From Thiotrichales bacterium HSG1 (GTDB taxonomy: Bacteria > Pseudomonadota > Gammaproteobacteria > Beggiatoales > Beggiatoaceae), in the NCBI GenBank assembly GCA_030378125.1, contig JAUCGN010000091.1, positions 1-6,901 of the forward strand: a stretch of 6,901 nt of DNA, in the 5' to 3' direction. Within the stretch, counting starts at the first letter, position 1, and every line of letters begins with the position of its first letter. The position numbers and the translations under genes were made by a program. Positions 810 through 6,901 of this stretch are shown here, piece by piece. The notes beneath the pieces were generated by a model that was given only the letters and a program-made list of their open reading frames with translations, was not told where the DNA came from and searched no databases.

Positions 810-903
810 ATTCTTAAAATATTTCCTATTGGTTTAAAATTTAAGTTCGAAGAGTTTTAGTTATTGAGGCACAAATTGTTATTTTAATAAACATTCATTT
901 TTT

Positions 904-993
904 GGTAGTCCTGCAATATATAGTGATAAATCTATTAATCTCTTAATATTTAACAGATTTTTTAGAACAAACACTATTCTGTGCAGGACTACC
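904..993 (+). mobile_element. MITE-like element, copy 1 (90 bp)
   Basis: A non-coding 90-bp element is bounded by perfect 12-bp terminal inverted repeats, GGTAGTCCTGCA (904-915) and TGCAGGACTACC (982-993). The inverted symmetry resumes after a 4-nt break with ATAGTG (920-925) and CACTAT (972-977). It is flanked by the 8-bp direct repeat CATTTTTT (896-903 and 994-1001), read as a target-site duplication. A second copy lies at 6540-6629 in the same orientation with 87 of 90 identical positions; the differences here are at 918, 941 and 956. It has no room for a transposase, so it would be mobilised in trans. It sits 94 bp upstream of the start of the minus-strand coiled-coil gene. Confidence 0.92.
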
Positions 994-1557
994 CATTTTT
1001 TTATTTTTAAGTAAATATTTTTTATAATTTATGCTTAGGTATTAAGAAATTTGCTACATATAATCTGTACTAGTATAACATGTAATTTAAGTAAAATTGA
1101 TTTGTATTTATTTAGTATAACTTTTACACATTGGCAAAAGAAAATCAGCATCGTCGTTATAATATCTGTTGAATTCTGACTATTTGATTCCGTTTGAATA
1201 TGAGCTTTAAGGAACAATAAATAACTCCATATCTTTCCTATTAAACCATATTTACTTTTATAATCAAAAACTAACACAGTACGTTTGTGTTGGAAGATAA
1301 AAAATGAAAACAAAAGGTTATAACTTTGAGCATAATTTTACTCATGGTAAACAATATCTTACTTTTGGCAACTCTCATCCTAATTGAAAATTCCTATTTT
1401 TTTTGCTTGAATAAATGAGTTATTTGGCTAAAATGAGATTTACTGTTTTAAGACTGACCTATTGGCTTATGAACAGTATTTTTTTGAAAGAAATAAATCA
1501 ATTTATTATTATATAAATACATATAAACCAATACTTTATAAGTAATACAAAATTTAT
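994..1557. other. Gene-poor AT-rich stretch with an IS relic
   Basis: Apart from the transposase remnant annotated separately at about 1264-1378, I see no supported gene, RNA or repeat here. The base composition is extremely AT-rich. The single minus-strand open frame at 1035-1313 has no ribosome-binding site, an implausible composition and lies antisense to the relic. Residual transposase sequence may continue beyond 1378 in other frames, for example a LAKMRF... segment read around 1430, but it is too decayed to delimit. Confidence 0.5.
1264..1378 (+). pseudogene. Transposase remnant (DDE-type, C-terminal part), frameshifted
   Basis: Two adjoining plus-strand frames together spell a recognisable conserved stretch of a DDE transposase family. 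From 1291, one frame reads WKIKNENK, matching the family pattern RWKIENE-F. From 1304 the next frame reads MKTKGYNFEHNFTHGKQYL, matching LKTKGYNLEHNFGHGKQHL. The join requires a small frameshift near 1304-1312. The second frame stops at 1376-1378; after that a third frame gives LLATLILI, which fits the next family segment (a hydrophobic LATL-LLAF stretch). The upstream catalytic domain is not detectable, so only a decayed fragment survives. The ATG at 1304 with a GGAAG upstream could express a 24-codon peptide, but this is probably accidental. The family assignment is from remembered motifs, and the ends are approximate. Confidence 0.6.
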
Positions 1558-1586: not shown

Positions 1587-1750
1587 AAAAAGTTTGCGAT
1601 TATTTGAAAAATACACTATTCTATGGGTCATGATGTTTCACGCATCAAAATGTTTAATATTATGTATTAATAATCATCGAATTATTTTTGATTGTTTAAA
1701 GGCATGGTATTTACGAAATTTAGAAATATTTACAGAGGTTAGTATTAGGT

Positions 1751-1954
1751 ATGAACCGTGGTACAGTGAAATGGTTTAACGACTCTAAAGGTTTTGGTTT
1801 TATTTCGCCTGAAGATGGTAGCAAGGACATATTTGTCCATTTTTCAAGTATTCAAAAAGAGGGGTTCAAGACTCTCAACGAGGGGCAACAGGTTGAGTAT
1901 GAATCAACTGATGGCCCGAAAGGTCCTCAGGCAACCAAGTGTTTTCCTATTTAG
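1751..1954 (+). CDS. Cold-shock domain protein (CspA family)
   Basis: This 67-residue protein spans a single complete cold-shock domain, the usual CspA size. It starts [10 protein letters not shown], followed by the RNP1 motif KGFGFI at 13-18 and the RNP2 motif DIFVHF at 26-31, both nucleic-acid-binding beta-strands. The last third ([21 protein letters not shown]) matches the family closing strands. Such proteins bind single-stranded RNA or DNA in the cytoplasm, melt secondary structure and act as RNA chaperones or antiterminators. The ATG is fixed by family alignment; AGAGG at 1734-1738 lies 12 nt upstream, slightly far for a ribosome site. It is transcribed alone, behind a long non-coding region and against the pilin genes. 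Whether it is cold-induced cannot be decided from sequence; many family members are constitutive or stress-related. Confidence 0.96.
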
Positions 1955-1977
1955 ATTAAAGTCTTGATGTAAAAAAA

Positions 1978-2004
1978 CCGTGGTCTAACTTTGTTAGGCT
2001 GCGG
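1978..2004. terminator. Shared hairpin terminator between convergent genes
   Basis: Arms CCGTGGTCTAAC (1978-1989) and GTTAGGCTGCGG (1993-2004) enclose a 3-nt loop. In the plus-strand RNA all 12 positions pair, nine Watson-Crick and three G-U. In the minus-strand RNA the same three positions become A-C mismatches, but the hairpin is followed by seven U residues (A-run at 1971-1977). It lies 23 bp past the cold-shock gene stop and 19 bp past the pilin stop, the expected place for a bidirectional terminator. On the plus strand the tail is poor (CTATGTAG). Confidence 0.7.
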
Positions 2005-2023
2005 CTATGTAGAAACTTTTGCG

Positions 2024-2650
2024 TTATAAAGAAAAATATAGTTGGTGTTCTACTTCTGTTGTTCCGTTGTCATCATCATAATCTGATAAACTACTCCTAA
2101 TTCTTCCAGTAATTGGGTTTTCATCATCAGAATGAGCGTCCAAAATAACGGCAATATTTCCGGGGACACCAGTAAATCCAACGAACAATGTCATGTTATT
2201 CCCTTGAGCTCCATTATCATTACCATTGCTTGTAGAAGATGAATCGCTTGACACTCCCATCCAACCATTGAAGGCATTTTGAGGTTGTTGTTGTTGGTTT
2301 GATGTTCTTTCTACCATATCTGCTGAACGCAAGTGTAGCCACAATAAACGAGATTCATCGTTAACTGTTTGTGAAGCAAAATTGCCGTTTATGATACCGT
2401 CCCCACCTCCATCATCGCTATTTCCAACTCCTTTAAATCGACTTGCCCCATCATCATCACCTGGAAGTTGATGGTAATGTTCACGATAAACAGTAATAGC
2501 TTTAGAAATACTGCTAAAGTTGTTTTGGATATTTTTTACCTTGGCGTTAGTAATAAGTTCACTACCTTTAAGCACCGTTCCCATAACCAGTCCTATAATT
2601 ATAAAAACGATGGCAATCTCAACAAGAGTGAAACCATCATTAGTTTTCAT
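2024..2650 (-). CDS. Type IV pilin-like protein B (pseudopilin/minor pilin)
   Basis: This 208-residue prepilin has a 6-residue leader ending in Gly6, cleavage before Phe7 (MKTNDG/FTLVEIAIVF), and the conserved glutamate at +5 of the mature protein. The hydrophobic helix runs to about residue 27 and continues as the amphipathic N-terminal helix. The globular part contains LPGDDD (62-67), a glycine-aspartate loop (78-89), DESRLLWLHLRSADMVE (98-114) and a DDENP segment near 175-179; these are also present in its neighbour. The protein has no cysteine, so no disulfide D-loop. Asp clusters may bind calcium as in GspG-type pseudopilins (inference). It carries Q-rich (118-125) and S/N/G-rich (134-152) low-complexity inserts that the paralog lacks. 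It starts 17 bp after the paralog stops and has only a weak ribosome site, suggesting coupled translation. A prepilin peptidase and an assembly machine elsewhere would be needed. Confidence 0.88.
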   Translation of the reverse strand: MKTNDGFTLVEIAIVFIIIGLVMGTVLKGSELITNAKVKNIQNNFSSISKAITVYREHYHQLPGDDDGASRFKGVGNSDDGGGDGIINGNFASQTVNDESRLLWLHLRSADMVERTSNQQQQPQNAFNGWMGVSSDSSSTSNGNDNGAQGNNMTLFVGFTGVPGNIAVILDAHSDDENPITGRIRSSLSDYDDDNGTTEVEHQLYFSL

Positions 2651-2667
2651 TAATCTAGACCAAAAAA

Positions 2668-3267
2668 TTACAATATAAAATAGACATCTCGTATGTCATC
2701 ACTATTACCTTTATAAACAGTTTTACCACTGGCTCTGATGCTACCTTTGGTTGGGTCTTCATCATCGGCTCTTGATTCTAGTATAGCCGCTATATCATTA
2801 GGAATTTTAGAAAACCCTATATAGGTTTTTCCTTCTGCTATGGATGGTGTTGTTACTATCTTAGAAGATACCCCCGTTAACCCACCACCGAAAGCATTAC
2901 CCGGTAAAGTACTGTCACCTGGCTCCCCCTCCACTAATCCAGATGAACGTAGATGAGCCCAAAAATATCCACTTTCATCGGTAGCAGTAGGGGCAAGAGC
3001 GTCTCCTTCAATATTTCCATCATTATCACCACCGGTTATTCCAAATCTGGCTTGTGTTTTAATTTTATCATCATCCCCCGGCAAAGCTCGGTAGCGGTCT
3101 TGATAACTAAAAATTGCGGCAGTTATTCCAGTAAAGTCATTTTCTAAATTTTTTATCCTAGCATTTTTCACAATTTCTTGACCTTTGAGGACTCCGCCTA
3201 ATAACAACCCAATAATCACCATAACAATAGCGATCTCTACTAAAGTAAAACCTCGTTGATTACTCAT
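2668..3267 (-). CDS. Type IV pilin-like protein A (pseudopilin/minor pilin)
   Basis: This 199-residue prepilin is the upstream member of a tandem pair. I place the start at 3267, not the in-frame ATG at 3285. GGAG at 3274-3277 sits six nt upstream of 3267, and this start gives the standard 6-residue leader MSNQRG with cleavage before Phe7 and Glu at mature position 5. Shared features with its neighbour are LPGDDD (63-67 region), the acidic loop GGDNDGNIEGD (79-89), DESGYFWAHLRSSGLVE (97-113), PNDIAAILESRADDEDP (156-172) and a terminal YF-L. There is no cysteine. Such proteins insert in the inner membrane by the N-terminal helix and are assembled into a type II secretion pseudopilus or type IV pilus tip. 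It lies 59 bp below the helical-repeat gene on the same strand, so it may have its own promoter or be read through. Confidence 0.9.
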   Translation of the reverse strand: MSNQRGFTLVEIAIVMVIIGLLLGGVLKGQEIVKNARIKNLENDFTGITAAIFSYQDRYRALPGDDDKIKTQARFGITGGDNDGNIEGDALAPTATDESGYFWAHLRSSGLVEGEPGDSTLPGNAFGGGLTGVSSKIVTTPSIAEGKTYIGFSKIPNDIAAILESRADDEDPTKGSIRASGKTVYKGNSDDIRDVYFIL

Positions 3268-3300
3268 TTTTGTCTCCACAATCACAATTTATCAATAAAA

Positions 3301-4814: not shown

Positions 4815-6509
4815 ATGTCTTTTAATTTAACTTCACCCAAACATGAACACCGTCTACTTGGTCTGTTATTAATATCCATACATATTGTACTATGGTGGAA
4901 TTTTTCCAGTTTTCCAGAACTATTATTGCGGATTGGATTGCTTATTCATCTTGGAATTTTTATTTTGTGGCAACCTTTGTGGAGCCAATTAAATATTCAT
5001 AGTATTAAATATAATATATTGTTAATTATAGCAATTTGTATATTTTTAACTTTTCCTAATGTATTTTTATTAATCTTTTGGCAAATTATATTACTAGGTT
5101 TATTGGGGGGGCGCGACTTAGTTAAACCGGTTGATAAAACGATCAATTTAGTGGCAATTGTATTTTTATGTTTGGAAATATTACTAACTGTTTTTAGTCG
5201 TTTATTCATATTTGATGAATTAATTCAATATTTTACAACTAGTATTTGGTTTAAATATGGAATACTACTAATTCCATTCATATTTTTGTTTATAACTACT
5301 GATGATAGTAGGGAGCATCGTTATTATGTCAATTTTTTTCATGGTTTAACCATTGCAATGGTAATTGTTATTATAACTTTAGGTAGTCTAGTTATCAACC
5401 AAACAAACCATGTAATTATACCACTAGCAGTTTTTCAGATGGTATTGGCCATATTAATTTTTATTTTAACGATTAGTTGGTTATGGATTATACTTATTGG
5501 AGAGGAAGGAACAGAATCGTTGTGGACCCGGCATTTATATAATATTGGTGGCTCCTTTGAACAATGGATAGAACATTTAGCTCAACCAATTCATCACAAA
5601 AATTTAACTCCCCCAGAATTTTTGCAAGCAGGTTTTGAGCAGTTATTAACTTTGCCTTGGATAACTGGTATTGCTTGGCATTCTTTGTACGGTGAAAATA
5701 TGTTAGGAGACCCTGCCTCTCATAAAATGGTTATTATAATCCAATCAACTGAAATTACAATTTATCCCCGTTATCGAATAAGTGCTAGCCACTCCTTCCA
5801 AATTAAAATTTTAGTCCAATTATTGGAATATTTTCATCAAACTAAACGCCGGGAAGCAGCTTTTGCTCAACAAGCCCATCTACAAGCTATTCATGAAACT
5901 GGAGCAAAACTAACTCATGACATTAAAAATCTATTACAATCTTTACATGCAATTACATCAGCCATAGAAATATACCCACCTTCTAAACATGATGATACAC
6001 AAAGGTTATTGCAAGGACAATTACCACATTTAACCCAACGTCTTAAACGTACTTTAGACAAGTTACAAAAACCGGCTGAATTTTCTTATTCCAATGTACC
6101 AGTTCAATTATGGTGGAGCAATGTACAGGCTCGTTACCGTAAGAGTGAAATTTATTTTCATACTGATGTAGATGATGAAAATGTCTTGATTCCAGAAGAT
6201 TTATTCGATAACGTTACTGAGAATTTATTACAAAACGCTCTTATGAAACGGAAACGGGAAGCAAAATTAAAAATTGAAGTGTCATTATCTATTAAACAAG
6301 GCAATTTGCAATTGAGCGTGTTTGACGATGGCAGCCCAATACCTGATGAAATATTTAATAGCTTGTTTAGCCAACCGGTTCCATCTAAAGATGGTTTTGG
6401 AATAGGTCTATATCACGTTGTGAAACATCTCTATCACACTGGTTACGAACTACAAATTACCAATAATATTGCTGGTAACGTGTGCTTTGAGCTTGCCAGC
6501 ACCGAATAA
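4815..6509 (+). CDS. Membrane sensor histidine kinase (HDIKN type), orphan
   Basis: This 564-residue protein has an N-terminal membrane region of about seven or eight helices (14-30, 36-53, 65-98 as one or two spans, 110-131, 147-161, 174-194, 199-228). A cytoplasmic GAF-like segment follows (about 240-340, LTPPEFLQAGFEQLLTLPWITGIAW). The kinase core has an H-box with His368 in THDIKN (367-372), an N-box DNVTENLLQNAL (465-476, Asn470/Asn474), a G1 box DDGSPIP (504-510) and a G2 box GFGIGLY (527-533). All residues needed for ATP binding and autophosphorylation are present. The HD-[IL]-KN H-box recalls the PrsK-like and related kinases rather than the classical HE type. No receiver domain or response regulator gene follows; the next gene is lptC. 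It is divergent from the permease pair, a possible target. It ends with a double stop (TAATAA). Confidence 0.92.
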   Translation: MSFNLTSPKHEHRLLGLLLISIHIVLWWNFSSFPELLLRIGLLIHLGIFILWQPLWSQLNIHSIKYNILLIIAICIFLTFPNVFLLIFWQIILLGLLGGRDLVKPVDKTINLVAIVFLCLEILLTVFSRLFIFDELIQYFTTSIWFKYGILLIPFIFLFITTDDSREHRYYVNFFHGLTIAMVIVIITLGSLVINQTNHVIIPLAVFQMVLAILIFILTISWLWIILIGEEGTESLWTRHLYNIGGSFEQWIEHLAQPIHHKNLTPPEFLQAGFEQLLTLPWITGIAWHSLYGENMLGDPASHKMVIIIQSTEITIYPRYRISASHSFQIKILVQLLEYFHQTKRREAAFAQQAHLQAIHETGAKLTHDIKNLLQSLHAITSAIEIYPPSKHDDTQRLLQGQLPHLTQRLKRTLDKLQKPAEFSYSNVPVQLWWSNVQARYRKSEIYFHTDVDDENVLIPEDLFDNVTENLLQNALMKRKREAKLKIEVSLSIKQGNLQLSVFDDGSPIPDEIFNSLFSQPVPSKDGFGIGLYHVVKHLYHTGYELQITNNIAGNVCFELASTE

Positions 6510-6539
6510 TAACTTGTTAAACCCTTAAATTATTTCTTT

Positions 6540-6629
6540 GGTAGTCCTGCAATGTATAGTGATAAATCTATTAATCACTTAATATTTAACATATTTTTTA
6601 GAACAAACACTATTCTGTGCAGGACTACC
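6540..6629 (+). mobile_element. MITE-like element, copy 2 (90 bp)
   Basis: This second copy of the 90-bp element has terminal inverted repeats GGTAGTCCTGCA (6540-6551) and TGCAGGACTACC (6618-6629), identical to those of copy 1. It differs from copy 1 at 6554, 6577 and 6592 only. A perfect 8-bp direct repeat ATTTCTTT flanks it (6532-6539 and 6630-6637). It differs from the flanking repeat of copy 1, so each copy arose by its own insertion. It occupies most of the gap between the kinase stop and the lptC start, 42 bp before the ATG, where it could alter read-through or promoter function. Confidence 0.93.
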
Positions 6630-6671
6630 ATTTCTTTAAATGTTTATAACAAACAATAGGAAAAAAATACT

Positions 6672-6901
6672 ATGTTAAAACCTTGGTGGGTGGTTTTATT
6701 ATTTTTAGTATTTGTAACTACTTGGTTAGTACAAAGTGTTGACGATGATTCGATAATTCCTCCCACAGAAGAACTGAGAATCCCTGATTACAGCCTAACT
6801 AAATTTAGTAGTACCCGTATGGATGAATCTGGTCAATTGAAAAGTCAGTTGACAGCAGTTGATATGAGCCATTATCCTAACGTCAATACTAGTATAACAG
6901 A
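6672..6901 (+). CDS. lptC: LPS export protein LptC, 5' part (cut by window end)
   Basis: The first 76 complete codons are present. An N-terminal membrane anchor (about 5-20, WWVVLLFLVFVTTWLV) is followed by the typical LptC opening. PDYSLTKFSSTRMDESGQLKSQLTAVDMSHYPN (38-70) matches the family pattern PDY-L--F--T-MDE-G-L---L-A--M-HYP. LptC is the bitopic inner-membrane protein that receives lipopolysaccharide from LptB2FG and passes it to the LptA bridge. AGGA at 6658-6661, ten nt upstream, supports the ATG. In most gammaproteobacteria kdsC precedes lptC; here the neighbour is a histidine kinase with a MITE between. lptA and lptB would be expected to the right, outside the window. Confidence 0.88.
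   Translation, partial: MLKPWWVVLLFLVFVTTWLVQSVDDDSIIPPTEELRIPDYSLTKFSSTRMDESGQLKSQLTAVDMSHYPNVNTSIT

What the first reader, a model, noticed from the sequence alone, without database searches (positions are those of the whole stretch)
896..1001. Two near-identical 90-bp MITEs with perfect TIRs and distinct 8-bp target duplications
Copies at 904-993 and 6540-6629 share 87 of 90 positions, the same 12-bp perfect inverted termini (GGTAGTCCTGCA), a second inverted block (ATAGTG/CACTAT) and the same orientation. Each has its own perfect 8-bp flanking repeat (CATTTTTT; ATTTCTTT). Different target duplications with near-identical cores indicate recent, separate transposition of one small family. 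An 8-bp duplication with GG-starting termini is compatible with trans-mobilisation by an IS1595- or ISL3-like transposase; that part is inference. I do not recognise the element.
Basis: seen in the sequence. Interest (0 to 1): 0.75.

Follow-up and report, generated by a model that had tools for sequence, protein, structure and literature searches.

The report
IS1-type mini-transposons of Beggiatoaceae bacteria
The two 90-base repeats are copies of a tiny gene-less transposon that occurs in several genera of sulfur bacteria, is likely moved by enzymes of the IS1 family, and in some relatives carries the same hairpin core as other transposon-like repeats with unrelated ends.

Summary
In detail: 904-993 and 6540-6629 are 90-bp elements, 87/90 identical, each with its own perfect 8-bp duplication. 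Three searches find 53 places, some partial, in this 63%-complete genome. Of 67 aligned elements from three genomes, 26 have a perfect 8-bp duplication (0.08 expected). One copy is nested in an IS1-family element whose other copies show the empty site. These are MITEs.

The suggested IS1595/ISL3 helper is not supported: no IS1595 transposase was found (ISL3 not tested). Full-length elements with the same 22-bp end layout encode IS1-family transposase here and in relatives. Helper action is inferred; only broken helper copies were seen here.

The family occurs in seven Beggiatoaceae genera, mostly at about 90 bp. In some relatives its core is a double palindrome found in 30 of 42 family genomes (2575 matches) and 0 of 397 other Pseudomonadota genomes, and also inside repeats with other ends. 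That shared core is the surprise. Terminator and RNA roles were tested and not supported. New member of a known kind.

The parts
896..903 (.). target duplication of copy 1, left (CATTTTTT)
   Evidence: 8/8 match to 994-1001
904..993 (+). MITE copy 1, 90 bp
   Evidence: full-length match in BLAST and covariance-model searches
904..915 (+). left terminal inverted repeat, 12 bp GGTAGTCCTGCA; the 22-bp IS1-type end runs on through the block at 920-925
920..925 (+). second inverted block ATAGTG = inner part of the 22-bp IS1-type end
928..963 (+). core: weak inverted repeat with T-run, read as a diverged double-palindrome hairpin (inference)
972..977 (+). partner of the second block, CACTAT
982..993 (-). 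right terminal inverted repeat
994..1001 (.). target duplication of copy 1, right
6532..6539 (.). target duplication of copy 2, left (ATTTCTTT)
6540..6629 (+). MITE copy 2, 90 bp, between a histidine-kinase-like gene (4815-6509) and an open frame at 6672 that I call lptC-like from recall; identical 90/90 to the copy at G000:C365:4292-4381
6564..6599 (+). core of copy 2
6630..6637 (.). target duplication of copy 2, right

Best explanation
The two repeats are members of a MITE family: 90-bp elements without genes that insert with 8-bp target duplications and are likely cut and joined in trans by an IS1-family transposase that would recognise their 22-bp ends. Shown: the multi-copy family, the 8-bp duplications, a nested insertion with matching empty sites, and IS1-family elements in the same and related genomes with the same end layout. 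Inferred: that the IS1 transposase performs the movement, that helper copies are or were intact in the cell, and that the window's core descends from a double palindrome shared with other repeats. The core is probably dispensable for movement, since copies with weak cores, the two in the window included, have perfect duplications.
For: 36 BLAST hits, 40 of 65 candidates scored, 53 distinct places in this genome, some partial. 95 model hits of 104 scored (some may be the two strands of one near-palindromic element). Perfect 8-bp duplications at 13 of 34 elements here, 5 of 16 in G004, 8 of 17 in G012; 26 of 67 in all against 0.08 expected. Thirteen identical 90-mers in G012 at different sites, 10 of 13 with perfect 8-bp duplications; three identical pairs in this genome. 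The copy at G000:C337:3950-4039 lies inside an IS1-family copy, flanked by AAAAAATA twice, while two other IS copies are uninterrupted there. IS copies C362 and C421 are 778 bp with matching 22-bp ends GGTAGTCCTGAACAAAGTAGTG and match IS1 transposase (PF03400 E = 1e-17 for C362; 54% identity of C362 to an intact relative). The right end of the 13 identical G012 MITEs matches that 22-mer 22/22; the window's right and left arms match it at 19/22 and 17/22. The intact relative (L131, 238 aa) is PF03400 E = 2.8e-22. IS1-family matches occur in 11 of 14 genomes searched. IS copies with perfect 8-bp duplications: L132, L146, L369, L377.
Against: No intact IS1 transposase was seen in this 63%-complete genome; C362 and C421 are frame-broken. 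Of 23 IS copies in which my scripts found both ends, only 4 have a perfect 8-bp duplication, and none of the 3 in this genome. Three of the 14 genomes searched have no IS1 match (G003, G052, G053), although G053 has a MITE with a perfect duplication, and G011, with 36 model hits, has one weak IS1 match (E = 2.7e-5). The window's left arm agrees with the IS end at only 17 of 22. IS1 of E. coli usually duplicates 9 bp (recalled). Helper action itself is untested.
Confidence: 0.88

Rival explanations
1. The elements are moved by an IS1595-, ISL3- or other 8-bp-duplicating transposase, and the likeness to the IS1 ends is coincidental or secondary.
For: Those families also duplicate 8 bp and have GG-starting ends (recalled; an ISL3-linked MITE with 8-bp duplications is described in Microcystis, PMC11448079, passages seen). 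No intact IS1 helper was seen in this genome. ISL3 was not searched for.
Against: PF12762 has 0 hits in this genome. The full-length elements found with the same 22-bp end layout are IS1.
Confidence: 0.06
2. The elements are kept mainly for a host function: a folded RNA or transcription terminator distributed between genes, with transposition only as the original source.
For: 108 of 110 elements lie outside ORFs of 90 aa or more, with flanks 66% coding by a simple ORF caller. Elements fold well as RNA, and cores in several relatives form long stems followed by a T-run. On 63 distinct but clonal rows, paired cells, both-sided cells and covariation score exceed all 500 shuffles.
Against: T-run orientation does not follow transcription: of 89 elements with a gene on both sides, 24 tandem pairs run with it and 35 against, p = 0.19. 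Inner-stem mismatches do not favour G-T over A-C (36 against 66; in the outer stem 34 against 19, mostly one pair). The number of pairs with both-sided change (10, shuffles 9.4) and of pair types (34, shuffles 35.3) are not raised. With 13 divergent cores, native halves fold no better than halves exchanged between elements (p = 0.23). The terminator scan found none at either copy.
Confidence: 0.05
3. The near-palindromic arms stay alike through quasi-palindrome (template-switch) correction during replication, so the hairpin is a mutational by-product and not selected. This adds to the MITE reading and does not compete with it.
For: Both-sided changes in the inner stem without strand-specific RNA signal there. 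Loss of one half-core (18 bp) in 72-bp forms fits slippage at palindromes.
Against: Does not account for copy number or duplications. Not tested directly.
Confidence: 0.3

Closest known systems
IS1 family insertion sequences
   Same: 22-bp end layout GGTAGTCCTG-N6-[AG]TAGTG, 8-bp duplications at some copies, IS1-type transposase in the full-length partner
   Different: the 90-bp element has no gene; by eye its core is not the sequence found inside the ends of C362 and C421
MITEs of 'Candidatus Thiomargarita nelsonii' (hupL MITE and TATAG MITE of the dsrA intron; PMC4853749, passages read)
   Same: same bacterial family; high copy; the TATAG element is mostly intergenic and hairpin-forming, and its ends resemble one of the other shells here that carry the double-palindrome core
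   Different: hupL MITE: 10-bp direct and 19-bp inverted repeats; dsrA MITE: TATAG ends. The passages link neither to IS1 nor to an 8-bp duplication. Their sequences were not seen
MITEAba12 and ISAba12 (PMC6382973, abstract and passages)
   Same: MITE paired with its IS by shared ends and duplication length; nearly fixed length (90% are 113 bp); 40% of 90 copies with duplications
   Different: other IS, 9-bp duplication, other ends (related ISs listed there end GGCTTTGTTGCACAAA)
187-bp Microcystis MITE linked to ISL3 (PMC11448079, passages)
   Same: 8-bp duplication, stem-loop, mainly intergenic
   Different: 9-nt ends GGCTCTTCG, ISL3 partner, 187 bp

Membership tests
MITE (non-autonomous DDE transposon) | terminal inverted repeats | tested here: met
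MITE (non-autonomous DDE transposon) | constant-length target duplication differing between copies | tested here: met
   26 of 67 perfect 8-bp, 0.08 expected; 1 of 67 has 9 bp; 10 of 13 identical G012 copies
MITE (non-autonomous DDE transposon) | multiple dispersed copies, no coding capacity | tested here: met
   one search lists no ORF of 60 aa or more within either copy; copies
MITE (non-autonomous DDE transposon) | empty site | tested here: met
   C337 copy nested in an IS, compared with the uninterrupted C421 and C362; one site only, and the first base of the duplicated octamer is A there and T in the other two. Orthologous window site of copy 2 not comparable
IS1-family MITE | ends shared with an IS1-family element | tested here: met
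   22/22 for the right end of a G012 subfamily, 19/22 and 17/22 for the window's right and left arms
IS1-family MITE | partner encodes IS1 transposase (InsA zinc ribbon, InsB DDE domain) | tested here: met
   PF03400 over cut-off; PF03811 just under its cut-off of 26.1 (25.1 in L131; 23.3 in C421)
IS1-family MITE | partner gives the same 8-bp duplication | tested here: met
   only 4 of 23 two-ended IS copies, 0 of 3 in this genome
IS1-family MITE | IS1 transposase moves the element | not testable with these tools
   needs an assay
IS1595-driven MITE | IS1595 transposase in the genome | tested here: not met
   PF12762: 0 in the own genome, which is 63% complete
ISL3-driven MITE | ISL3 element with the same ends | not tested
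   no ISL3 search was made
Correia/ERIC/RUP-type (TA duplication) MITE | TA target duplication | tested here: not met
   8-bp duplications instead; the definition of these families is recalled

The most novel reading that the evidence does not exclude
A portable hairpin core: in Beggiatoaceae one double palindrome (ACCTGNCAGGT, about 7 nt, ACCTGNCAGGT) sits at the centre of mini-transposons with unrelated ends (IS1-type GGTAGT, two TATAG-type shells, and a GGATTTAATAA type), and shells are swapped by recombination at this core. New MITE families would then arise by changing ends around a common hairpin, not only by internal deletion of an insertion sequence.
Probability: 0.45. Interest if true: 0.68.

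Novelty: new member of a known kind. Interest (0 to 1): 0.45.

Why it matters
It gives Beggiatoaceae, whose MITEs were described without a parent found in ISfinder in the one paper that I found on them (PMC4853749, passages), a MITE family with a named likely helper, and may help to explain their fragmented assemblies. If the shared core reflects real exchange, it shows a route by which new MITE families form: keep the hairpin and swap the ends.

Tried and rejected
IS1595 helper: no hit. RNA selection on the hairpin: G-T and A-C mismatches in the inner stem were 36 and 66, so no signal there for an RNA read in the T-run orientation; the outer stem has 34 and 19, mostly from one pair. Terminator role: orientation against genes not biased (24 and 35, p = 0.19), and no terminator call at either copy. 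Covariation: three of five measures exceed all 500 shuffles on 63 clonal rows and two do not; 13 divergent cores do not beat chimeras, and only 2 of 13 rank at the best end of their chimeras. Treated as inconclusive. Orthologous empty site for copy 2: the gene after the kinase is another one in the four congeners, so no comparison. Viral carriage: the exact MITE pattern has 0 hits in viral contigs. Rfam: nothing at the MITEs. Paper searches for IS1-linked bacterial MITEs, for Beggiatoaceae MITEs or repeats and for the core letters (304 papers, 20 listed, none of these 20 about such repeats by title) showed no report of this family. The library lacks most subscription papers, and ISfinder was not available.

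Full report
Check of the observation. The 12-mer end is strongly over-represented in the genome against its reversed control (50+50 against 5+3).

Copy number and mobility. The window is contig C455 of a 2.22-Mb, 457-contig genome that is 63% complete. BLAST gives 36 hits (40 of 65 candidates scored). Together with the end-pair scan and the pattern search I count 53 distinct places, some partial. A covariance model built from 67 elements gives 95 hits in this genome, with at most 104 candidates scored per genome; because the element is nearly palindromic, some hits may be the two strands of one element, as seen. The 67 elements, 34 own, 16 of G004 and 17 of G012, came from loci found by BLAST and passed a length filter of 86-94 bp. 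Of them 26 have a perfect 8-bp duplication and 34 at most one mismatch, against 0.08 and 1.61 expected from mismatched flank pairs; one has a 9-bp duplication instead. The sites are AT-rich; position 2 of the duplication is A in 88% and position 6 is T in 88% of 26. Identical copies at different sites show recent movement: three pairs in this genome, and in G012 thirteen identical 90-mers, 10 of 13 with perfect duplications. The copy on C337 lies inside an IS1-family element and is flanked by AAAAAATA twice; two other copies of that element are uninterrupted at this place, where the first base of the octamer is T and not A.

Length. A pattern with exact 9-bp ends that allows 69-129 bp finds 36 places in this genome: 29 of 88-91 bp and 7 of 72-75 bp (counted from its rows). 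The five of 72 bp lack one half of the core (18 bp).

The helper. Two full-length 778-bp elements, C362 and C421, carry matching 22-bp ends GGTAGTCCTGAACAAAGTAGTG and a frame-broken IS1-type transposase. The right end of the identical G012 MITEs matches this 22-mer 22/22; the window's right and left arms match at 19 and 17 of 22. The same 22-mer forms both ends of an IS copy in G050 (L390) and one end of a copy in G012 (L368). In relatives the IS1 copies have ends of the same kind, GGTAGT..N..GTAGTG with variation, and four copies have a perfect 8-bp duplication (L132, L146; L369, L377), out of 23 with both ends found; none of the three in this genome does. The intact relative L131 (238 aa) is PF03400 E = 2.8e-22 with a sub-threshold InsA zinc ribbon. 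With its protein, IS1 matches occur in 11 of 14 genomes searched; G003, G052 and G053 have none, and G011 has one weak match. Short derivatives with IS-type ends and IS pieces also exist here: 132 bp on C26 and 166 bp on C409. That the IS1 transposase moves the MITE is inferred from these matches.

Range. BLAST with the window's 90-mer finds it in 4 of 40 relatives' genomes, the own one included. The family is therefore Beggiatoaceae, and the window's genome shares the genus of G001-G004. The model hits 22 of 42 family genomes, eight of them with 20 or more hits (G000, G001, G002, G004, G011, G012, G050, G051), but this overstates the range, because in several genomes the best match is a hairpin in another kind of repeat. 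Elements with GGTAGT-like ends were seen in G000-G004, G006, G011, G012, G040, G050-G053 and G056, that is in seven genera, some with one such end only. Perfect duplications outside the three aligned genomes were seen in G001, G040 and G053. The exact-end pattern hit only 3 of 30 genomes; G002, G003, G004, G050 and G051 were not among those 30.

The core. In this genome's main subfamily the core is a weak, AT-rich inverted repeat. In relatives it can be a strong hairpin: ACCTGACAGGT..ACCTGTCAGGT in G011 and G050, the variant CCTACTAGG/CCTAGTAGG in G004, and other hairpin sequences in G040 and G053. The exact double palindrome ACCTGNCAGGT-N3-9-ACCTGNCAGGT occurs in 30 of 42 family genomes, 2575 forward matches in sum and up to 586 in one, with 0 for the reversed control; in 0 of 397 other Pseudomonadota genomes; and in 32 stretches of viral contigs. 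This genome has two exact copies. Among 91 distinct exact cores in fetched loci, viral ones left out, the script put 3 between two IS1-type arms, 6 between two arms ending in TATA after TCTGAA, 2 between two arms ending TTATTAAATCC, 1 mixed (L309), 9 with one recognised arm, and 70 in no class. By eye, L181 (G001) also has two IS1-type arms, and 17 of the 20 G018 cores that I fetched (of 48) sit between two further arms ending in CTATA; the script had left these unclassified. So repeats with unrelated ends share one core. Exchange of shells at the core is my inference; the single clear mixed element is L309. That the other shells are transposons is inferred from their inverted ends and copies; their duplications were not tested.

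What the core is not shown to be. It does not follow gene direction as a terminator should (24 and 35 of 89 elements with two neighbours, p = 0.19; 108 of 110 elements outside ORFs of at least 90 aa). Its inner stem has no G-T excess. In a clonal set three covariation measures exceed shuffles and two do not; in a divergent set native halves do not beat chimeras (p = 0.23). Copies with weak cores have perfect duplications, so the core is unlikely to be needed for movement.

Literature. PMC4853749 (passages) reports two MITE kinds in Ca. Thiomargarita nelsonii and found no parent in ISfinder; one has TATAG ends and a long hairpin and resembles one of the other shells here, but its letters were not seen. 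PMC6382973 and PMC11448079 (passages) give MITE-IS pairs of other families. PMC3718332 (passages) has archaeal MITEs tied there to ISC1733 and ISC1058. PMC11172852 was seen in a listing only; its abstract start says that Beggiatoaceae has 25 genera in GTDB, the number of genera in the 42 genomes here. No report of this family was found in the searches named in Tried and rejected.

Noticed in passing
window 6510-6671; L295-L298: In the four congeners the kinase gene (4815-6509) is followed by another small gene, whereas here copy 2 and an lptC-like frame (name recalled) follow: the MITE lies at a break of gene order.
   Followed up: partly
G000:C44, C109, C120, C132, C447: 72-bp forms with one half of the core missing (18 bp), probably slippage between the two palindromes.
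   Followed up: partly
L309:1501: Core with one TTATTAAATCC-type arm and one TATA-type arm: a mixed element.
   Followed up: partly
L238, L242: MITEs on contigs filed as Bacteroidales MAG CSMAG_1681; either mis-binned contigs or transfer.
   Followed up: no
L333-L364: The double palindrome occurs in 32 stretches of viral contigs, repeated closely in L356.
   Followed up: no
window 1690-2007: Weak cspA thermoregulator match (37.2 bits, gathering 78) over a cold-shock gene at 1751-1954.
   Followed up: no
window 2024-3285: Two neighbouring genes with the N-terminal methylation motif known from type IV pilin-like proteins.
   Followed up: no
L217, L247: Hits of the MITE pattern in Hungatella and a Chitinophagaceae MAG without a model match, probably chance.
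   Followed up: yes
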